NCBI RefSeq assembly: GCF_013267355.1
Contig: NZ_CP053985.1
Span: 1,550,001-1,614,000 of the forward strand
Direction of reading: 5' to 3'
Source of the DNA: Achromobacter pestifer
GTDB taxonomy: Bacteria; Pseudomonadota; Gammaproteobacteria; Burkholderiales; Burkholderiaceae_B
Length of the DNA: 64,000 nt
A program made the position numbers and the translations under genes. Shown here piece by piece: positions 6,318 through 22,989 of this stretch. A model generated the notes under the pieces. That model was given only the letters and a program-made list of their open reading frames with translations. It did no database searches and had not been told where the DNA came from. Position 1 is the stretch's first letter. Each line of letters opens with the position of its first letter.

Positions 6318-9300
6318 ATGAGCTCCCAAATTCGCATCGTTGGCGCCCGCCAGAACAATCTCAAGAACCTGGACCTGACCATCGCCACTGGCGAACTGGT
6401 CGTCGTGACCGGCGTGTCGGGGTCAGGCAAAAGTTCGCTGGCCTTTGACACTCTCTACGCCGAGGGACAGCGGCGTTATGTGGAAACCTTCTCGCCCTAT
6501 GCGCGCCAGTTCCTGGACCGCATGGACAAGCCGCAGGTAGACCGCATCGAAGGCATCCTGCCCGCCATCGCCATCGACCAGACCAATCCGGTGCGCAGCT
6601 CGCGCAGCACGGTCGGCACGATGACGGAACTGAACGACCACCTGAAGCTGCTGTTCGCGCGCGGCGCCAAGCTGTATTGCCGCGGCTGCGGCAAGGTGGT
6701 GCGGCGCGACACGCCTGATTCCGTCTACCACTCGCTGGCCGAACGCGCCGCCGCTGCCGGCGACCCGCGCCTGGTGGTGACCTTCCCCATCGCCGTCCCG
6801 TCCAACTTCACTGAAGAAGAAGTGCGCGGCTTCCTGGAGCAGCAGGGCTACACCCGGGTGCACGCCGAGGAAACCGCCGCGCCGCGCGCGGCCGCCCCGG
6901 CCAAGGGCGCCAAGAAAACCAAGGCCGCAAAGGCCGGCACCGAATCGCGCCGCATCCTGCACGTGATCCAGGACCGCTTCCGTTTCGCCGGCACCGAACG
7001 CGAACGCATCATGGAAGCGCTGGACACCGCGCTGCGCATGGGCGCCGGCCACCTGGCCGTGTACGTCATGGACGCCGAGGGCGGCAACGCCCACATCTGG
7101 AAGTACAGCGACCGCCTGCATTGCGCGGATTGCGACATCGAGTACACCGATCCCCTGCCCAGCAGCTTCTCGTTCAACTCGCCCCTGGGCGCGTGCGAAG
7201 CCTGCCGCGGCTTCGGCCGCGTGATCGGCATCGATTTCGGCCTGGTCATCCCGGACGAGAACAAGACCCTGCTGGAAGGCGCCATCAAGCCCTGGACGAC
7301 TCCGTCGTACAAGGAATGCCAGGACGAACTGCAGAAGTACGCGCCCAAGGCCGGCGTGCCGCTGGGCGTGCCCTGGAAGAGCATGAGCGAGGAGCACAAG
7401 CGCTGGGTGCTCTACGGCACGCCCGACTGGAAGGGCGGCAACGACGCCTGGAAGCACCAGTGGTACGGCGTGCAGCGCTTCTTCGACTGGCTCGAAACCA
7501 AGGCCTACAAGATGCACGTGCGCGTGCTGCTGTCGAAGTACCGCAGCTACACGCCCTGCCCCACCTGCAACGGCGCGCGCCTCAAGCCCGACGCGCTGCT
7601 CTGGCGCTTGGGCACCCGGGAAGAGGCCGACACCGTGCTGCCGCCGGCAGACGGCCGCTACAAGCGCTTCATGCCCGTGAGCGCCAACTGGAGCCGCGAA
7701 CAGCTCGAAGGCCTGGGCGGCCTGTCCATCCACGACGTGATGCTGCTGCCCATCGAACGGGTGCGGATCTTCTTCGACGCGCTGTCGTTCTCCGGCGCGC
7801 TGGACGCCGCCACCGACCTGCTCATGACCGAAGTGCGGGCGCGGCTCAAGTTCCTGTGCGACGTGGGCCTGGGCTACCTGACGCTGGACCGCCAGAGCCG
7901 CACGCTGTCCGGCGGCGAAGTGCAGCGCATCAACCTGACCACGGCGCTGGGCACCTCGCTGGTGAACACTCTGTTCGTGCTCGACGAGCCGTCCATCGGC
8001 CTGCATCCGCGCGACATGCACCGCGTCGTCGAAGTCATGCACCGTCTGCGCAACGCCGGCAACACGCTGGTGGTCGTGGAGCACGACCCGCAGGTCATGG
8101 TGGCCGCGGACCGCATCATCGACATCGGCCCCGGCCCCGGCGAACGCGGCGGCCATATCGTCTTCGACGGCACGCCGGCCCAGCTGCGCGCCGCGCGCAC
8201 GCTGACGGGCGACTACCTGGGCGGCCGCCAGCGCGTGGAAGCGCCGCGCCCCATGCCGGTGGCGGCGAACACGCCGCGCCTGCTGCTGGAAGGCGTCAAC
8301 GCGCACAACCTGAAGAACGTTTCCGTCGAACTGCCGCTGGGCCGCCTGGTCTGCGTGACCGGCGTGTCCGGCTCGGGCAAGTCCACGCTGGTGCAGGACG
8401 TGCTGTTCCCTGCCCTGCTCAAGCAGAAGGGCAAGCCGTCGGAATCGCCCGGCGCGTTCGACCGCCTGCTGGGCGCGGAGCAGATCGCCGACGTGGTCAT
8501 GGTCGACCAGACCCCCATCGGCAAGACCGCGCGCTCCAACCCGGCCAGCTACGTGGGCGCGTTCGACGCGATCCGCAAGCTGTTTGCCCAGGCCCCGCTG
8601 GCGCGCGAACGCGCCTACACCGCGGGCACCTTCAGCTTCAACGGCGGCGACGGCCGCTGCCCGACTTGCGGCGGCACCGGCTTCGAGCACGTGGAGATGC
8701 AGTTCCTGTCCGACGTGTACCTGCGCTGCCCGGACTGCGACGGCAAGCGCTTCCGCCCCGAAGTGCTGGAGGTGCGCGTCGAGCACCTGGGCAAGAGCGC
8801 ATCCATCGACGAAGTGCTGGCGATGACCGTCAGCGAGGCGCTGGACTTCTTCAAGGGTCTGCGCGACGTGCAGACCGGCCTGGCGCCGCTGGCCGACGTG
8901 GGCCTGGAATACGTGCGGCTGGGCCAGCCCGTGCCTACCCTGTCGGGCGGCGAGGCGCAGCGCCTGAAGCTGGCCGGCCACCTGGCCGAAGCCGCGCGCA
9001 GTGGCATTTCGACCGCCAAGGTCGCCAAGAAGGGCAGCCTGTTCCTGTTCGACGAACCCACCACCGGCCTGCACTTCGACGACGTGGCGCGGCTGATGCG
9101 CGCATTCCGCAAGCTGCTGGCCGCCGGCCACACGCTGCTGGTGATCGAACACAACCTGGACGTGATCCGCGCGGCGGACTGGCTGATCGACCTGGGCCCC
9201 GAAGGCGGCGACGCCGGCGGCCTGGTCATCGGCACCGGCACGCCGCAGGACCTGATGGACAACCCCAAGTCGCATACGGGCGCCGCCCTGCGCGACTACG

Positions 9301-12080
9301 AAGTCAGCATCCTGCCAGCCGACGTGGTGGTAAGCACCGACGCCGACGCGCAGGAAGTCGAACAAGCCGGCCTGACCGCCCGCATTGCCGAGCCTGGCGA
9401 AGCCTACGGCGCGGACGTGGGCCGCCCACTGCAATCCCTCGTGCGCGAGCGCCGCCAGGCCAACATGGCGATCGAGATCCGCAACGCCCGCGAGCACAAC
9501 CTGAAGAACGTCAGCGTGGAAATCCCGCGCGACAAGTTCACCGTCATCACCGGCGTGTCCGGTTCCGGCAAGTCCACGCTGGCCTTCGACATCTTGTTCA
9601 ACGAGGGACAGCGCCGCTACCTGGAATCGCTCAACGCCTACGCCCGCGCCATCGTGCAGCCGGCCGGCAAACCGGACGTGGACGCCATCTTCGGCATTCC
9701 GCCCACGGTCGCCATCGAGCAGCGCACCAGCCGCGGCGGACGCAAGTCCACCGTGGCCACGATGACGGAAATCCACCACTTCCTGCGCCTGCTGTACGTC
9801 AAGCTGGGCACGCAATACTGCCCCGACTGCAACGTGGCGGTGGAGCCCCAGAACACGGACCAGATCGTGGCGCGGCTGCTGCGCGAGCACCGGGGCGTAC
9901 ACATCGGCCTGCTGGCGCCGCTGGTCACCGCCCGCAAGGGCTACTACACGGATCTGGCCAAGTGGGCCGGATCCAAGGGCCACTCGCACCTGCGCGTGGA
10001 CGGCGAGTTCATCCCCGTCGCCCCCTGGCCGCGCCTGGACCGCTACAAGGAACACACCATCGAGCTGCCGATCGCGGACGTGGTGGTGGATCCGGCCAAC
10101 GAGGCCGAGCTGCGCGCGGCGGTCAAGAACGCGCTCGAAAACGGCCAAGGCGTCATGTCGGTGGTCTGGCCGGTGAACAAGCTGCACGAGGCGCTGGACA
10201 GCGACCTGCAGCAGCAGCACTTCTCCGTCAAGCGCGCCTGCCCGTCCTGCGGCACCAGCTTCCCCGAGCCGGATCCGCGCCTGTTCTCGTACAACTCCAA
10301 GCACGGCTGGTGCACCGGCTGCTACGGCACCGGCCTGCAACTGCAAGGCTTCGACGAAGAACAGACCGGCGAGGAAACCGCCTGGAACGCCTGGTACGAA
10401 GGCGAGGCCAAGCCCTGCACGCAATGCGACGGACAGCGCCTGAACCGCGTGGCCCGCGCCGTGCGCTGGCGCGACAAGTCCATCGCGGAACTCGCCTCGC
10501 TGCCGGTGTCGGACGCGCATACCTTCTTCACCGGACTGGTGGCGCGCGGCCGCGAAGGCGAGATCGCCCGCGACATCCTCACGGAAATCCGCGGACGCCT
10601 GAACTTCATGCAGGAGGTGGGGCTGAACTACCTGGCGCTGGACCGGGCCGCGCCCACGCTGTCCGGCGGCGAAGCGCAGCGCATCCGTCTGGCCGCGCAG
10701 CTGGGTTCGAATCTGCAAGGCGTCTGCTACGTGCTGGACGAGCCGACCATCGGCCTGCATCCGCGCGACAACCGCATCCTGCTGGACGCGCTGGCGCGCC
10801 TGGAAGGCAACGGCAACACGCTGGTGGTGGTGGAACACGACGACGACACCATCCGCCGCGCCTCGCACATCATCGACATCGGACCGGGCGCGGGCATCCG
10901 CGGCGGCCGCGTGGTGGCCCAGGGCAGCGCGCAAGACCTGATCGACGCGCCCGAATCGGTCACCGGCCGTTATCTGGCCAAACCCTTGCAGCATCCGCTG
11001 CAAGGCCGCCGGCCGGTCGAGGCCGACACGCCCATGATCGAGATCAAGGGTGCGCGCCTGCACAACCTGCGCAGCGTGGACGCGCAGTTCCCGGTGGGCC
11101 GCCTGAGCGTGGTGACCGGCGTATCGGGCTCGGGCAAGTCCACGCTGGCGCGCGAAGTGCTGCTGGACAACCTGATGCAGGCCGTCTCGCAAGGCAAGGC
11201 GCCGGGCTGGGCGGGTTGCGAAAGCATCAAGGGCTGGGAAGCCATCGACCGCGTGCTGGAAGTGGACCAGACGCCCATCGGCAAGACGCCGCGCTCCTGC
11301 CCGGCCACCTACGTGGGCTTCTGGGACGACGTGCGCAAGCAATTCGCCGATACCCGCGAAGCGCGCATGCGCGGCTGGACCGCGGCGCGCTTCTCGTTCA
11401 ACACCGGCGACGGCCGCTGCCCGATCTGCGAAGGCCAGGGCATGCGCACCATCGAGATGAACTTCCTGCCGGACGTGAAGGTGCCCTGCGACGCCTGCAA
11501 CGGCGCGCGCTTCAACAACGACACGCTCAGCGTGCAGATGCGCGGCAAGAACGCCGGCGAACTTCTGTCCATGGAAGTGGACGACGCCATCGGCTACTTC
11601 GCGGCGCATCCCAAGATCCACCGCCCGCTGCAGCTGATGCAGGACGTGGGCCTGGGCTACCTGACGCTGGGACAGCCCTCGCCCACGCTGTCGGGCGGCG
11701 AAGCGCAGCGCATCAAGCTGGTGACCGAGCTGTCCAAGGCCCGCCTGACCGACGGTCTGATCAAGACCGGCCGCGCATCCCGCATCCCGCATACGCTGTA
11801 CGTGCTGGACGAGCCCACCGTCGGCCTGTCGATGGCCGACGTGGAAAAGCTGATCCATGTGCTGCATCGCCTGGTGGAAGCCGGCAATACGGTGGTGGTG
11901 ATCGAGCACAACCTGGACGTGATCGCCGAAGCCGACTGGCTGCTGGACCTGGGCCCCGAAGGCGGCACGGGCGGCGGCAAGCTGGTGGGCGAAGGCTCTC
12001 CCGAACACGTCATGACCCTGAGCGACCATTCCCATACCGGACGGGTCCTGAAGGAATTCCTGGCACATCAACAGCAGTAA
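6318..12080 (+). CDS. Tandem-duplicated UvrA (excinuclease ABC subunit A, 1920 residues)
   Basis: The protein is two UvrA units in one chain, about 1-1049 and 1050-1920. All four ABC ATPase sites look intact: Walker A GVSGSGKS near residues 33, 682, 1079 and 1601; LSGGE signatures near 533, 875, 1448 and 1791; Walker B as [24 protein letters not shown] and LDEPTVGL. Each unit has UvrA zinc-type cysteine clusters (for example CPTCGG/CPDCDG and CPICEG/CDACNG) and a region matching the UvrB-binding domain; in the first this carries an Ala/Lys-rich insert near 183-209. Usual UvrA is about 940 residues and works as a dimer, so this is a covalent dimer of a UvrA paralogue. Likely role: damage recognition in nucleotide excision repair, possibly SOS-controlled. 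pabB starts five bases after its stop. Confidence 0.9.
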
Positions 12081-18009: not shown

Positions 18010-18310
18010 GGTTCTTTAGACGCCCGGCACGGCGGCGCCCGGGGTGGCGCGGGGCAACGATTGCGGTCCGGAGCCTTCGCTCCGGACTGCCCCGTCGTCA
18101 TCGTCGTCCAGGCCTGCGGCCTTCCCTTCCGATTCCCTCGGGCTTATCGACGCCCCGCGCCACCCCGGGCGCCGCCGCGCCGGGCTCTTCCAGCTGAATC
18201 TTGCCGGCCGCTGGGCCGGGCGGTGTGCTTGGCGTTCTGCTTCCTGGGGAGGACGAGAGAAAGATCTTGCAGGGACGCCAAAGACGGCCGCGCGGGCGGC
18301 CTTCTTTGGC
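18010..18310 (+). repeat. Structured dispersed repeat, copy 1
   Basis: About 300 bases between tcdA and the enoyl-CoA hydratase gene match copy 2 at 22684-22989 in inverted orientation. Order: a 13-base lead (18010-18022), a left arm (18022-18055), a 96-base core, a right arm (18152-18185) complementary to the left at 33 of 34 positions, a 91-base linker with CTTGGCGTT and AGATCTTGC, and a hairpin (18277-18310). The core holds a 9-bp stem, GTCCGGAGC with loop CTTC (18066-18087). No protein or transposase is credible inside. The hairpin ends 63 bases beyond the hydratase stop and could terminate that operon. No gene lies in 17981-18373. Confidence 0.85.
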
Positions 18311-18373
18311 ATATGGGTGTTGGTGGATGTATGGAGGACGCTGCGCGCAGGCGTGGCATTCGAAGCTGATGGG

Positions 18374-19150
18374 TCAGCGTCCGCGGTATTGCGGCGCACG
18401 CTTCTCTTGAAAGGCTCGCCGGCCCTCGATGCGGTCTTCCGTGTCTCGAAGCAGACCGAAGGCGTAGCGTTCAAGTTCGAGCGCGCCTTCGAGCGGCATT
18501 TCCAGGCCTTCTCGTACCAAACGCTTGACCGCTCGAACAGCGAGCGGCGCGTTCGATGCGATGCGGCGCGCCATGGCCTGGGCCATGGGAAGAAGATCCT
18601 CGCGCGATGTGATGCGACTCACCAGCCCTATTCGTAGCGCTTCGTCGGCGTCGATCCGGTCACCCGTGAGCAGCAGGAGCATCGCGCTGGATAATCCTAT
18701 GGCCCGCGGCAGACGCTGCGTTCCACCGCCGCTGGGGATGCTGCCGATGCGGACCTCGGCCAATCCGAAGCTGGCGTCTCTTGAAGCGATGCGGATGTCG
18801 CAGGCGAGCGCGATCTCCAGCCCCCCGCCGATCGCATGACCATTGATGGCGCAGATGATCGGTTGAGCGATTTTCACGCTTCCCATGATGGAGTCGGATT
18901 GACTGCGACCGAAAGTGAGCTGGGCAAAGCTTTCCTTGGGCGGCATGGTCTTCTTGAGGTCGGAACCCGTACTGAAAGCCTGGTCACCCGCTCCGGTCAG
19001 GATCACCACGCGGATCGTGTCGTCACTGGAGATTCCTGCCAATGCCGAGCGGAGTTCTGCTCGCGTCTCCGGGTCAATGGCATTCATCGCCTCCGGGCGA
19101 TCCAGCGTGATGGTGGCCACGCCGTCGTCCACATGGATTCTTACGGTCAT
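18374..19150 (-). CDS. Enoyl-CoA hydratase/isomerase family protein
   Basis: A 258-residue crotonase-fold protein. It shows RPEAMNAI near residue 18, FSTGSDLKK, the oxyanion-hole segment INGHAIGGGLEIALACD, and AEVRIGSIPSGGGTQRL in the place of the catalytic-Glu loop; the first catalytic Glu position is not conserved as E-x2-G in the usual way, so exact chemistry is open. It is the third gene of an operon after two CoA-transferases (82 bases downstream), so it probably acts on the CoA thioester they make. Codon use has more A and T at third positions than neighbouring genes. The start is the first ATG of the fold. Confidence 0.85.
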   Translation of the reverse strand: MTVRIHVDDGVATITLDRPEAMNAIDPETRAELRSALAGISSDDTIRVVILTGAGDQAFSTGSDLKKTMPPKESFAQLTFGRSQSDSIMGSVKIAQPIICAINGHAIGGGLEIALACDIRIASRDASFGLAEVRIGSIPSGGGTQRLPRAIGLSSAMLLLLTGDRIDADEALRIGLVSRITSREDLLPMAQAMARRIASNAPLAVRAVKRLVREGLEMPLEGALELERYAFGLLRDTEDRIEGRRAFQEKRAPQYRGR

Positions 19151-19233
19151 GATGTTTCCCCTGTTTCTGCACTAGACGGCAAACGCTCTTGCAATGGCGT
19201 TCGCGGCGAAGGCTGGAGGTTTCTGTGTCACGG

Positions 19234-20469
19234 TCATCGAAGCGCGCCGATTCCGCGCAAGTCCGCAATCCTTGCGTCGCTCAGTTTGAGACGTTCTTTC
19301 AAGATCTCATCAGTGTGCTGTCCTAGCAACGGCGCTGGAAACCTCGCATCACCAGGAGTCCGAGAGAGCTTCATGGGTGGCGCGCTGTAGACCGACACGC
19401 CCATCTCGGGATGATCCAGCCAGCGCCAATGGTCTCGATGCGCCAGTTGTGGGTCATGGCGAAGAACGTCCGCCGCGTCTTGCACCAGTCCGGCTGGAAC
19501 CCCGAGAGTCTGCGCTCGCTCCATCAAGGCTTGAGCGGGCTCGTCTCGTGTCACGCAAGCGATGTCGTGATCCAGCCGCGTGCGATTGCGTAGGCGCAGG
19601 GCGGGAGTCCCGTACTCGGAATCGCGAAGAACGGCCGGATTGCCCAGCGCAGCCTGCAATCCATACCATTGATGATCTGTCTTGGCGGACAAGGCGATCC
19701 AGCGGTCTTGTCCTGCGCACGGATAGACGCCATGCGGAGAAAAAGGTTCGTGCACATTGCCCCGCGCCGCCCCGATCCGGCCATTGGCGGTGTAGTCGCA
19801 AACCGCAAGACCCAGTAATGCGATCATGGGTTCAATCTGCGCCAGGTCGATGTATTGTCCCTTTCCCGTACGTCGACGATGGCGCAATGCCGATAGAACG
19901 GCGATGGCGGCATGCGTCGGGTTGGGAATATGGTCGGGAAAATTGGTCCCGGTTCCCGCAGGGGGACGGCCAGGCAGGCCGCACAAGTGCTGCAGACCGG
20001 TCAAGGCGCCCATGGTCAATCCATAACCCAGATAGTTCGCGTGCGGCCCTTCATCCCCTTGCATGGACATTGCCAGGTAGACAATGGACGGATTGCAGTC
20101 CCTCACGGCAGGATATCCAAGACCCAAACGGTCCATGGCGCCAGGGGTGAAGTTGTTGGCGACGACATCGGCGCCCTTGATCAGATCCAGGGCCAACGAC
20201 AACGCCTCTGGAGACTTGAGGTTCAGGGTAATACTACGTTTGCTGGAGTTTCGGTCGGCGAAGTAGCCGCTGCGATTCACACCCGGACGGCCGTCCTTGA
20301 AGGGCCTGGCTTCCCGCAGCGAGTCCAGGCGATCGGCGCTCTCGATCTTGATGACATCGGCGCCGAAATCCGCAAACAGCTTGGTGGTGAAGGATCCGGC
20401 GCCAATCCACGTGAAATCGATGATGGTGATGCCGCTCAGCGGCCCTGCGGATTCGCGTTTGGTCGTCAT
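19234..20469 (-). CDS. CaiB/BaiF family III CoA-transferase subunit lacking the catalytic Asp
   Basis: A 411-residue family III CoA-transferase: GITIIDFTWIGAGSFTTKLFADFGADVIKIE at the N terminus, VVANNFTPGAMDRLGLGY, and LLGQHTDEIL near the end. At the position of the catalytic Asp, which normally reads GYD, it has GYG (Gly150). It overlaps the preceding CoA-transferase by four bases (ATGA), so the two are probably made in equal amounts and form a heteromer, as in two-subunit enzymes such as benzylsuccinate CoA-transferase. Start at 20469 is set by the overlap; the frame stays open upstream. Substrate unknown. Confidence 0.85.
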   Translation of the reverse strand: MTTKRESAGPLSGITIIDFTWIGAGSFTTKLFADFGADVIKIESADRLDSLREARPFKDGRPGVNRSGYFADRNSSKRSITLNLKSPEALSLALDLIKGADVVANNFTPGAMDRLGLGYPAVRDCNPSIVYLAMSMQGDEGPHANYLGYGLTMGALTGLQHLCGLPGRPPAGTGTNFPDHIPNPTHAAIAVLSALRHRRRTGKGQYIDLAQIEPMIALLGLAVCDYTANGRIGAARGNVHEPFSPHGVYPCAGQDRWIALSAKTDHQWYGLQAALGNPAVLRDSEYGTPALRLRNRTRLDHDIACVTRDEPAQALMERAQTLGVPAGLVQDAADVLRHDPQLAHRDHWRWLDHPEMGVSVYSAPPMKLSRTPGDARFPAPLLGQHTDEILKERLKLSDARIADLRGIGALR

Positions 20470-21725
20470 GCCGTACCCCCCGAAAGCAGCAGCAATTCCT
20501 GGTCCATGAAGCCTATGCCGAGTTCGCTCAGAATCGATGCCGTGTGCTCTCCGAGCCGGGGGGCCGGAGCGCCCAAGCGCCATGGCGTTTCAGTCAGGCG
20601 GTAGGGAGCCCCCGGTACCGCGAAGGACATGCCGGTGTACGGGTGATCGGTCTCCTGGAAGAACTGTCGATGCCGCAGCTGCGGGTTGACCAATAGGTCT
20701 GCGCTGGTACTGACGGGGCAAATAGGAATACGCCTGCGCTGTCCCTCGGCATAAAGCTGCGCCTTTGTTCTGGTCGAGGCGTATGGCAGGAAAACGCCTT
20801 CGAATTGTGCTTTGGCGTCATCGCTCGCGAGGAACTCAGGATCTTGCCACTGGGGCTCCAGGAGCGAGGCGGCGCCGGGAGCGCCGACATCCTGGAGCCA
20901 GCTTGCCGTGGCATTCCAAAAGCGATTGCCGGCGATCCCGCCTGCCATCAGGTAGACCATGCCGTCGCCGCACGAAAATACGCCGGTACCCGCCTGGCGC
21001 TGTTGACCGCCATTGCGGCGCCGCACCGTAGCCTCGAGATCCACGAACTGCGCCGCATTCTCCAGGGCCATCGACACGCACTCTTGTATCGACACGTCGA
21101 CCAATTGCCCGCTTCCGCTAGCGGTTTCGCATTCCCATAGCGCGATCAAGGAACCCACCGCGGCGAACTGCGCCGCCGCCAGGTAGGCTTGTTGCCCGTA
21201 TGCCGCCAACGGCGCGGTATCAGGATAGCCGCCCAGGTACAGCAATCCTCCCATGGCCAAGGTGGTGAGGTCGTCCGCCACGTACGTGGAATAGGGTCCC
21301 GTCTGGCCGTAAGGACTGATGCGAGTCAGAACCACGCTGGAGCGCGCCGCGCATAGATCCGCATAGCCCAGACCGAAACGTTCCAATACGCCTACGCCCC
21401 AATCCTCGATCACGATGTCGGCTGTCCGAGCCAATTTCAGCACGAGATCGCGACCTTCCGGCGTGGAGGCATCAAGGCAAGCGCCTTTCTTGCCTTGGTT
21501 GAGATAGGCGTATGACAGGCTCCGTTCCATGTGAGGCTGGTCGCCGACGAACGGCCCGGTTCGCCGGGTCGCGGATCCGGCCGGAGGTTCCACGAGTATG
21601 ACTTCCGCCCCGAGTTGCGCCAACAGCTTGCCGCAGTACTGCGTGGCATGCGTGCACAAGTCCAGGACACGCAATCCCTGCAAGGCAGTTCGCCTGGCAA
21701 TCTCATGTTCCATATAGTGAACCAT
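20466..21725 (-). CDS. CaiB/BaiF family III CoA-transferase subunit with catalytic Asp
   Basis: A 419-residue family III CoA-transferase, first gene of the three-gene minus-strand operon. It has LRVLDLCTHATQYCGKLLAQLGAEVILVEPP, DIVIEDWGVGVLERFGLGY, and SPYGQTGPY followed by ADDL, where Asp152 aligns with the catalytic residue. A close C-terminal LGEHTASIL is typical. Two starts are possible, 21725 and 21713. With the next gene it should swap CoA from a donor such as succinyl-CoA onto an organic acid, which the crotonase then processes. A divergent IclR gene starts about 85 bases away and is the likely regulator. Confidence 0.85.
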   Translation of the reverse strand: MVHYMEHEIARRTALQGLRVLDLCTHATQYCGKLLAQLGAEVILVEPPAGSATRRTGPFVGDQPHMERSLSYAYLNQGKKGACLDASTPEGRDLVLKLARTADIVIEDWGVGVLERFGLGYADLCAARSSVVLTRISPYGQTGPYSTYVADDLTTLAMGGLLYLGGYPDTAPLAAYGQQAYLAAAQFAAVGSLIALWECETASGSGQLVDVSIQECVSMALENAAQFVDLEATVRRRNGGQQRQAGTGVFSCGDGMVYLMAGGIAGNRFWNATASWLQDVGAPGAASLLEPQWQDPEFLASDDAKAQFEGVFLPYASTRTKAQLYAEGQRRRIPICPVSTSADLLVNPQLRHRQFFQETDHPYTGMSFAVPGAPYRLTETPWRLGAPAPRLGEHTASILSELGIGFMDQELLLLSGGTA

Positions 21726-21734
21726 CAGTATGAA
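21711..21734. promoter_or_regulatory. Candidate IclR operator in the CoA-transferase/IclR divergent region
   Basis: An imperfect palindrome with core ATAGTG-N6-CAGTAT spans the start codons of the first CoA-transferase gene. A further half-site, CATATACTG, occurs at 21800-21808 near the iclR-like start. IclR proteins often bind such sites in divergent promoters and act as repressors. This is pattern-based only. Confidence 0.35.
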
Positions 21735-21810
21735 TTGAATGACTGAACTCTAAATAAACTCGCTTTAAATGGGTATGCTTGGGTTTTGGAATTTGGTCCA
21801 TATACTGAAA

Positions 21811-22617
21811 ATGCCAAAACCAGCCGCTACTGATCGCGAGTCGAATTCAGGCACCCAAGCCCTGCGACGAGCCATGGCGCTGCTGCGCCTGATTACGACG
21901 CATAACCGAACAGGCCTGCGATTGACCGATCTGCACAGGATGAGTGAGATCGAGAAGCCCACTGTCCACCGCATCTTGCAAGGCTTGTTGGGTGAGGGAA
22001 TGCTGCGGCAGGATGTGAATAGCAAACGCTATTTTTTGGGCGCGGCCATGTACGAGATGGGGCTGGCCGCAGCGCCGCGATTGGCCGTTCGGGATGTGTG
22101 CCATCCGTACTTGAGAATACTGGCGGAGCAGACCGGCGATACGGTCTTTCTCATCGAACGCTCCAAGTTTGACGGCGTCTGCATGGACCGGGCGGAAGGA
22201 AGCTTCCCGATCAAGGCCCTGGTCCTGGATGTCGGTCGCCGCAGGCCGCTTACTGTCGGCGGCGGCAGCTTGGCGATCCTGTCGGCGTTATCCGAGCCGG
22301 AAGTGCAAAGGATCTGCGCCATCAACGACGCTCGCAGCAAAGAGCGATTTCCCCGATACAGCGCCGAAGAGCTGCAGCAGGATCTCATCGATGCGCGTAC
22401 GCGAGGCTACGTCATCAAGGATGCGCTTGAGATTCCGGGCGTCAGAACCGTTGCCGTCCCCATTCGCCAAACGGATGGGACGCCAGCCGGAGCAATCAGC
22501 GTCACCGCGATCGCAGCCCGTTTGGACCACAACCGCAGCGCGTTGATCGCCGGCTACATCAGCGACGCGGTCGCGCAGATAGAGGCAGAACTGAGCGGCC
22601 GAGGCACCCCCGCCTGA
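21811..22617 (+). CDS. IclR family transcriptional regulator of the CoA-transferase operon
   Basis: A 268-residue IclR protein. The winged helix spans about residues 16-65 (QALRRAMALLRLI, GLRLTDLHRMSEIEKPTVHRILQGLL), followed by an effector domain with DTVFLIERSKFDGVCMDR and AGAISVTAIAARL. It is divergent from the two CoA-transferases and hydratase, so it is the probable local regulator. The start at 21811 gives a normal IclR N terminus; an in-frame ATG at 21769 would add 14 residues. Neither has a clear ribosome binding site. Codon use is less GC-rich than the genome around it, like its divergent neighbours. The inducer is unknown. Confidence 0.83.
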   Translation: MPKPAATDRESNSGTQALRRAMALLRLITTHNRTGLRLTDLHRMSEIEKPTVHRILQGLLGEGMLRQDVNSKRYFLGAAMYEMGLAAAPRLAVRDVCHPYLRILAEQTGDTVFLIERSKFDGVCMDRAEGSFPIKALVLDVGRRRPLTVGGGSLAILSALSEPEVQRICAINDARSKERFPRYSAEELQQDLIDARTRGYVIKDALEIPGVRTVAVPIRQTDGTPAGAISVTAIAARLDHNRSALIAGYISDAVAQIEAELSGRGTPA

Positions 22618-22683
22618 CAGCCAAACGAACACCGCCTCCCCTAAGCGCGCAGCGCCACCACCACCCGCAAGACACCGCGTAAG

Positions 22684-22989
22684 CCCCAACAGGCCGCCCG
22701 GGCGGCCTGTTGGGGCGGGCACCGCAAGATCTTCGCCCACCACCACAGTCGGCAAGAACCCTACGAAGATCAGCCCTACCCAGCTAACGCCAAGTTTCGA
22801 AAGCGGAGTCTGGCGCGTCGGTGCGCTGGGGCGCGCGGGGCGTCGATAAGCCCGAGGGAATCCGAAGGGAGCCGAAGGGAGCCGAAGGCGTACGAGGATG
22901 ACGACGGGGAAGTCCGGAGCGTAGGCTCCGGACCGCAATCGTTGCCCCGCGCGCCCCAGCGCACCGACGCGCCAGACGTCTTAAGAACC
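22684..22989 (-). repeat. Structured dispersed repeat, copy 2 (inverted)
   Basis: This is the mirror copy of 18010-18310. Read on the minus strand: a 13-base lead that includes the efflux gene stop codon, a left arm (22944-22977), a 102-base core with the 9-bp stem GTCCGGAGC and loop CTAC (22912-22933), a right arm (22808-22841) complementary to the left at all 34 positions, a 90-base linker with CTTGGCGTT and AGATCTTGC, and a perfect 34-base palindromic hairpin (22684-22717). The core is near-identical to copy 1, but the arms differ at nine positions, eight compensated on the partner strand. Two tandem CGAAGGGAGC units lie in the core. No gene lies in 22618-22980. Confidence 0.85.

What the first reader, a model, noticed from the sequence alone, without database searches (positions are those of the whole stretch)
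18010..22989. Two inverted copies of a ~300-bp structured repeat with covarying hairpin arms
Seen directly: 18010-18310 and the reverse complement of 22684-22989 share a layout of outer stem, core, linker and end hairpin, with linkers of 91 and 90 bases and end hairpins of exactly 34 bases. The cores are near-identical, but the 34-base arms differ at nine positions; eight changes are matched on the opposite arm, so each copy stays self-complementary (33/34 and 34/34). The end hairpins also differ and are each paired. Conserved structure with changing sequence points to selection on folding, as RNA or cruciform DNA, rather than on a protein. I do not know a name for this family. An alternative is palindrome correction during replication, which would also keep arms paired.
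Basis: partly seen in the sequence, partly recalled or inferred. Interest (0 to 1): 0.85.

Follow-up and report, generated by a model that had tools for sequence, protein, structure and literature searches.

The report
Mobile element with mirrored RNA ends
The two mirrored repeats look like the two ends of a gene-less jumping DNA element that I found described nowhere, and each end appears to encode a precisely folded RNA whose shape has been kept by evolution while its letters changed.

Summary
In detail: arms pair 33/34 and 34/34, and eight of nine arm changes are compensated. The copies belong to a family with 36 copies in this genome, present in 42 of 43 genomes of the genus, with diverged relatives in Bordetella and other genera. 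On 123 distinct copies, 45 of 56 base pairs show both-side changes.

Three results change the reading. (1) The unit is the inverted pair: in Bordetella genomosp. 4 whole composites of 0.78-0.89 kb recur, 88-96% alike, at unrelated sites with sharp ends. (2) The constrained fold lies on the strand opposite to the one described: A-C mismatches outnumber G-T 95 to 14. With RNA energies the covarying P3 folds on the complement in 105 of 123 copies, on the named strand in 53; with DNA energies 87 and 86. (3) Element ends face gene 3' ends (32 of 36; 37 of 41 with a gene call).

Best reading: a non-autonomous mobile element whose ends encode outward-facing copies of a structured RNA. Expression and the mobilising enzyme are unknown.

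The parts
18011..18024 (-). Terminal box of the left end (GTTCTTTAGACGCC on the + strand); 3' end of the outward-reading module
   Evidence: aligned across own copies
18022..18055 (-). P1 outer stem, arm next to the boundary
   Evidence: 33/34 pairs with 18152-18185; covariation
18056..18151 (-). Core: three-way junction with P2 hairpin and irregular P3 hairpin; the covarying fold is the minimum-energy RNA fold on the - strand and not on the + strand
18152..18185 (-). P1 outer stem, arm next to the linker
18186..18276 (-). 91-nt linker; part of it (...GTGCTTGGCGTTCT... on the + strand) recurs in other genera
18277..18310 (-). P4 end hairpin (34 nt) with locus-specific arms
18311..18348 (-). 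Inner tail of the left half, to GACGCTGCGCGC
18374..22617 (.). Four-gene cassette between the two ends: enoyl-CoA hydratase (PF00378), two CoA-transferases family III (PF02515), IclR regulator (PF09339, PF01614); at this site seen only in own and G057
22683..22716 (+). P4 end hairpin of the right half (34 nt)
22717..22807 (+). 91-nt linker of the right half
22808..22841 (+). P1 outer stem of the right half, arm next to the linker
   Evidence: 34/34 pairs with 22944-22977
22842..22943 (+). Core of the right half (P3, P2, three-way junction)
22944..22977 (+). P1 outer stem of the right half, arm next to the boundary
22976..22989 (+). Terminal box of the right end; it contains the stop codon of the neighbouring TolC-like (OEP, PF02321) gene on the - strand

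Best explanation
The two copies are the two ends of one gene-less, non-autonomous mobile element of about 0.7-1 kb, here split by a four-gene cassette. Each end encodes the same structured RNA module, read outward from the centre: end hairpin (P4), ~90-nt linker, long stem (P1), three-way junction with P2 and an irregular P3, then a terminal box at the element's boundary. SHOWN: whole pairs recur at unrelated sites with sharp ends; the core covaries; the fold is constrained on the outward-reading strand and in the way expected of RNA; the ends sit next to gene 3' ends; cores are lost from kept sites while outer boxes remain. INFERRED: the module is transcribed, and a protein supplied in trans recognises the folded RNA (or, less likely, the folded single DNA strand) at both ends and spreads the element into gaps between gene ends. 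P1 and P4 need only be paired, so their letters drift. NOT SHOWN: transcription, excision or insertion in the laboratory, and the identity of the enzyme.
For: Mobility: eight elements of 884-890 bp and five of 780-816 bp in Bordetella genomosp. 4, 88.5-94.5% and 90.5-96.2% identical inside, about 40% in the aligned flanks. Structure: 45 of 56 pairs with both-side changes in 123 distinct copies, score 0.42 against 0.09 in shuffles; 34 of 56 on an alignment made without structure; 45 of 56 in 52 distinct Bordetella copies. Strand: A-C 95 against G-T 14; 56 copies against 9 with 58 ties (p 2e-9), 60 distinct events against 14 (p 6e-8), non-hairpin control only 30 against 19. RNA rather than DNA: 105 against 53 of 123 copies with RNA parameters, 87 against 86 with DNA parameters; Bordetella P3 pairs 85% against 52% with RNA, 67% against 59% with DNA. 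Targets: 32 of 36 own copies and 37 of 41 Bordetella ends with a gene call face a gene 3' end. Decay.
Against: No transcript has been seen; a sigma-70/terminator scan of one Bordetella element found 0 promoters and 0 terminators. No enzyme is known; no clear target-site duplication was seen by eye. The module is antisense to the neighbouring gene end at most sites. P4 shows no strand asymmetry (7 A-C against 5 G-T in 47 near-perfect hairpins). Nine of the 10 A-C cells in the Bordetella core come from one pair. A 91-nt fragment of a Bordetella core folds no better than shuffles on either strand (z -1.2 and -1.4). P3 and P4 arms change as whole blocks between close copies, pointing to conversion or templated rewriting as well. 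The non-hairpin control leans in the same direction as the asymmetry (30 against 19).
Confidence: 0.58

Rival explanations
1. DNA-level foldback or REPIN-like element: only the single-stranded or cruciform DNA hairpins matter, as binding sites for a transposase or a chromosome protein. The arms stay paired through templated palindrome correction during replication.
For: Symmetric inverted ends; near-perfect long stems (44 of 123 copies with 0 non-Watson-Crick pairs of 27); end-hairpin arms replaced as a block; cores lost from hairpins in relatives.
Against: Strand asymmetry of mismatches; the covarying core is favoured on one strand with RNA energies and hardly so with DNA energies; internal loops have stayed unpaired while flanking pairs covaried; no Y1 transposase in own genome or in G113.
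Confidence: 0.22
2. Host-serving 3' UTR or antisense element: the module acts at convergent gene ends to stop or separate converging transcription or to stabilise mRNA 3' ends, and is kept for that reason.
For: Location at gene 3' ends; sites that could be aligned are occupied in relatives at 88-94% mean identity (three each in G057 and G017, one in G015).
Against: At one orthologous site 15 of 35 genomes have no core and the rest have A or B, either orientation, or both; recent spread in Bordetella; no U-tract terminator or promoter found in the element scanned; window copy 1 lies upstream of ThiF.
Confidence: 0.12
3. Ordinary miniature inverted-repeat element (MITE) of a conventional DDE insertion sequence; the covariation is incidental.
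For: Imperfect terminal inverted repeat (AGTTCTATTGGACGTCGA), sharp ends, no shared coding frame, many copies.
Against: No clear target duplication by eye; the terminal 13-mer gave 39 places in G113, and the four extra ones that I opened held half elements or end remnants and no longer relative; incidental folding does not explain covariation and strand asymmetry.
Confidence: 0.08

Closest known systems
REPINs / REP-BIME elements with RAYT (Y1) transposases (abstracts PMC3116915, PMC2817692 in search listings; passages of PMC3733652)
   Same: Inverted doublets that spread as units; intergenic, between convergent or tandem genes, downstream of coding regions; palindromic.
   Different: REPs are 20-40 bp; here each half is ~300 nt with a three-way junction, linker and second hairpin. 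No Y1_Tnp in own genome or in the copy-rich G113.
Structured intergenic repeat families Bor-1 / Bor-2 of Bordetella bronchiseptica (Cozzuto et al. 2008, PMC2267715; passages read)
   Same: Bor-2 is listed as 167 nt, 17(6) copies, intergenic, structured: length, place and genus fit this module.
   Different: Sequences are not in the text I could read, so identity is untested; the passages I saw mention no pair unit, mobility or strand.
MITEs and foldback elements (recalled)
   Same: Short, gene-less, inverted ends, many copies.
   Different: Ends are structured, covarying modules; no parent transposon and no target duplication found.
omega-RNA / reRNA of IS200/IS605 and IscB elements (recalled)
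   Same: A structured RNA whose 3' side ends at the element boundary, so that read-through RNA would carry flanking sequence.
   Different: Here the module lies at both ends, and no gene is shared by the elements. TnpB/IscB was not searched for.

Membership tests
REPIN / RAYT system | inverted doublet that spreads as one unit | tested here: met
   whole pairs recur at unrelated sites in Bordetella genomosp. 4
REPIN / RAYT system | Y1 (RAYT) transposase in the genome | tested here: not met
   PF01797 absent from own genome and from G113; present in 10 of 43 genus genomes and 3 of 9 genomes
REPIN / RAYT system | simple 20-40 bp REP palindrome | tested here: not met
   163-nt three-way junction plus linker and end hairpin
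MITE of a DDE insertion sequence | terminal inverted repeats | tested here: met
   imperfect terminal repeat in both element families
MITE of a DDE insertion sequence | target-site duplication | tested here: inconclusive
   none seen by eye at 13 aligned elements; no matched empty site at close range
MITE of a DDE insertion sequence | autonomous parent with the same ends | tested here: inconclusive
   one 13-base pattern in one draft genome; four extra sites opened, no longer relative
Any Rfam family | match to a covariance model | tested here: not met
   0 matches over gathering score in the window; 0 matches at E <= 5 in L018 and L012
Bor-2 (B. bronchiseptica) | sequence identity with the published family | not testable with these tools
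   supplement not available; only tables seen
omega-RNA / TnpB-IscB systems | TnpB or IscB in the genome | not tested

The most novel reading that the evidence does not exclude
A new class of bacterial mobile element that spreads through structured RNA at both of its ends: outward RNAs whose fold is the recognition or catalytic unit, ending at the element boundary so that each transcript also samples the flanking DNA. It would be mobilised in trans by an unknown enzyme and aimed at the gaps between gene ends.
Probability: 0.13. Interest if true: 0.88.

Novelty: new variant of a known kind. Interest (0 to 1): 0.64.

Why it matters
The best-known intergenic mobile repeats of bacteria are short DNA hairpins tied to a known transposase. 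This family couples mobility, absence of any gene, and a large conserved RNA-like fold present at both ends, over nine genera of one family by model. It matches no Rfam family. It gives a natural test of how hairpin arms keep pairing while changing, with dozens of aligned paralogues and orthologues. If the RNA proves to be part of how the element moves, a new RNA-protein system is waiting to be found. It may also explain spurious small reading frames and contig ends in these genomes.

Tried and rejected
Rejected: protein coding (overlapping ORFs in several frames, none convincing). A known RNA family. RAYT mobilisation. Carriage on plasmids or phages: no match to the 311-nt copy-1 sequence. 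Purely mutational origin of the strand asymmetry (control: 30 against 19, same direction but much milder). Rolling-hairpin termini of the parvovirus type (recalled): in the 36 own copies the core keeps one orientation to box and linker, so no flip-flop. Transcription of the named strand as an ordinary 3' UTR: it fits the position but not the strand evidence.

Led nowhere: the lax pattern gave likely false B copies inside genes in the synteny blocks. The TolC-site states used here were checked with the model: copies, empty sites (0 matches in 18 loci: the 15 of the 35 counted genomes that lack a core and the 3 without ThiF). The centre of a Bordetella pair with ~1.9 kb between its ends shows only short ORFs. 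P4 hairpins show no strand asymmetry. A Bordetella core fragment did not fold better than shuffles.

Rows dropped: A1 holds 32 of 34 copies picked for diversity out of 115 (two with insertions left out). One search left out sources that repeat the same copies and raised the cut-off to 1e-10, which drops the antisense palindromic matches at the foot. For the TolC-ThiF site, 37 of 41 other genus genomes with an orthologue were fetched (four at contig edges left out), and 3 of the 37 had no ThiF next door, leaving 34 plus own. In some searches mismatches were counted on stem columns 7-33 only, because the three innermost pairs carry fixed subtype differences (one has 44 G-U cells). In one search the two innermost Bordetella columns must likewise be set aside (48 of 50 G-T cells), leaving 2 against 7.
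Full report
CHECK. Both copies fold far better than shuffles. The window's genome holds 36 copies of the module by BLAST and by a covariance model (the model's further hits there are antisense matches to the same palindromes). In 43 genomes of the genus 42 carry it; G002 does not.

ANATOMY. Two main subtypes differ at the foot of the core and in the 3' module (A: GTTCTTAAGACG..., B: CTTCGTAGGCC...); a third foot was seen in 10 of 115 copies. In own genome 22 of 36 copies form 11 convergent pairs 0.6-0.94 kb apart, and the window pair is 4.9 kb apart. The window pair is A/A with a four-gene cassette in the middle. At the orthologous gap between ThiF and the TolC-like gene, 35 genomes have both flanks (own plus 34 of 37 fetched): 20 carry at least one core, 15 none; 7 have the convergent pair, and only own and G057 have the cassette. 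Several single or empty sites carry remnants in which the hairpin has been lost and outer boxes remain (G003, G015, G045, G009, G043). In a 92-kb block the sites that could be aligned (three each in G057 and G017, one in G015) are occupied there too, often with one core missing.

COVARIATION. On 32 diverse copies aligned without structure, 34 of 56 pairs change on both sides. On 123 distinct copies aligned with the model, 45 of 56 do; covariation score 0.42 against 0.09 in shuffles and 0.03-0.07 when slid. Pairs inside the core, between conserved internal loops, switch type without a mismatch: UA/CG/GC in 63/42/18 copies, GC/CG in 102/21.

WHICH STRAND. The reverse is seen: 14 against 95 in the outer stem, columns 7-33, 3295 cells; 9 copies against 56 with 58 ties (p = 2e-9), or 14 against 60 distinct events (p = 6e-8). 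On the complement these A-C cells are G-U wobbles. In Bordetella genomosp. 4 the stem gives 2 against 7 once the two fixed innermost columns are set aside, and the core 1 against 10, of which nine lie at one pair. Outside the hairpins the same mutational classes are 19 against 30 in two Bordetella element families, milder but in the same direction. P4 shows no asymmetry (5 against 7). Energies agree: with RNA parameters the covarying P3 is complete, or all but one pair, in the minimum-energy fold of 105 of 123 copies on the complement and 53 on the named strand; with DNA parameters 87 and 86. In Bordetella, P3 pairs are 85% against 52% with RNA and 67% against 59% with DNA. The window's own core gives the covarying structure on the - strand only; a 91-nt Bordetella fragment in the same call showed nothing on either strand. 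On the complement the conserved internal loops read GA/GGA and GA/GAN, which I take (inference) as tandem G-A motifs. I conclude that a structured RNA read outward from the centre is the selected form, without having seen a transcript.

MOBILITY. A divergent relative was first found by the model in G116 and led by BLAST to 35 of 268 genomes in 11 of 43 genera of the family (weak and short hits included, two candidates scored per genome). The model matches loci of nine genera, own included, at E <= 0.01, and all ten genomes of other genera given to it. A pattern scan names Bordetella genomosp. 2 and 4, B. petrii, Bordetella sp. 02P26C-1, Allopusillimonas ginsengisoli and an Alcaligenaceae strain, plus a MAG and one Rubellimicrobium hit not examined. 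In a sample of 399 genomes of the order, no genome outside the family was hit by either model, under strict filters. G113 has contig lengths equal to those of Bordetella genomosp. 4 AU9919 and 57 matches, some cut by contig ends. Aligning whole pairs there shows eight elements of 884-890 bp and five of 780-816 bp, 88.5-94.5% and 90.5-96.2% identical inside and about 40% in the aligned flanks, with ends AGTTCTATTGG(A/T)CGTCGA. So the pair is the mobile unit. Within these, P3 and P4 arms differ by whole compensated blocks: L226 and L227 are 95.0% identical outside one end hairpin and 69.7% in it, which suggests conversion between copies or templated rewriting on top of selection.

WHERE. In own genome 32 of 36 copies have the 3' end of the neighbouring gene facing their outer end. 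In G113, 37 of 41 ends with a gene call do, 19 further ends had no call, and all 7 of 20 pairs with both neighbours called lie between convergent genes. Gene calls are by a codon score trained on the window. Window copy 1 is one of the four exceptions: it lies upstream of ThiF.

KNOWN OR NEW. No Rfam family matches. REPINs resemble it in behaviour, but the defining Y1 transposase is missing from own genome and G113, and the repeat is of another size and make. A 2008 survey lists a 167-nt structured intergenic family, Bor-2, in B. bronchiseptica (PMC2267715, passages only), possibly the same; it could not be compared. The searches listed no paper whose title or abstract describes the element; most subscription journals are not held, and the papers listed were not read in full.

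LIMITS. No expression data, no enzyme, no insertion caught in the act. Alignments A3 and A4 are fitted to the model and lean towards it; the unfitted A1 agrees. Copies are related, so cell counts are not independent events.

Noticed in passing
18374-22617: A four-gene cassette (enoyl-CoA hydratase, two family III CoA-transferases, IclR regulator) lies between the two ends; at this site it is seen in own and G057 but not in G058, whose TolC-like gene is closer to own's. It may be cargo taken up between the ends.
   Followed up: partly
6318-12080: A 1920-aa reading frame with UvrA domains that by eye looks like two UvrA-like halves fused.
   Followed up: no
L083 441-618; L075 912-1085: Two genomes of the genus (G003, G023) carry the same short G/C-rich insertion after P2 in the core.
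   Followed up: no
A3 columns 35 and 174 (feet of P1): About half the copies change G-C/C-G to a symmetric T-C/C-T double mismatch (GGGTC / ACTCCC): a correlated change that is not Watson-Crick compensation.
   Followed up: no
G113 contigs C21, C11, C3, C10, C14, C9: Several contigs of the Bordetella genomosp. 4 draft end within a few hundred bases of a copy, so the assembly probably breaks at the element and its copy number is a lower bound.
   Followed up: no
L289; L286: Solitary remnants of the terminal repeat in G113 with no core, perhaps traces of near-complete loss.
   Followed up: partly
L187 1295-1326: The divergent core pattern also hit a Rubellimicrobium contig: transfer, contamination or chance.
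   Followed up: no
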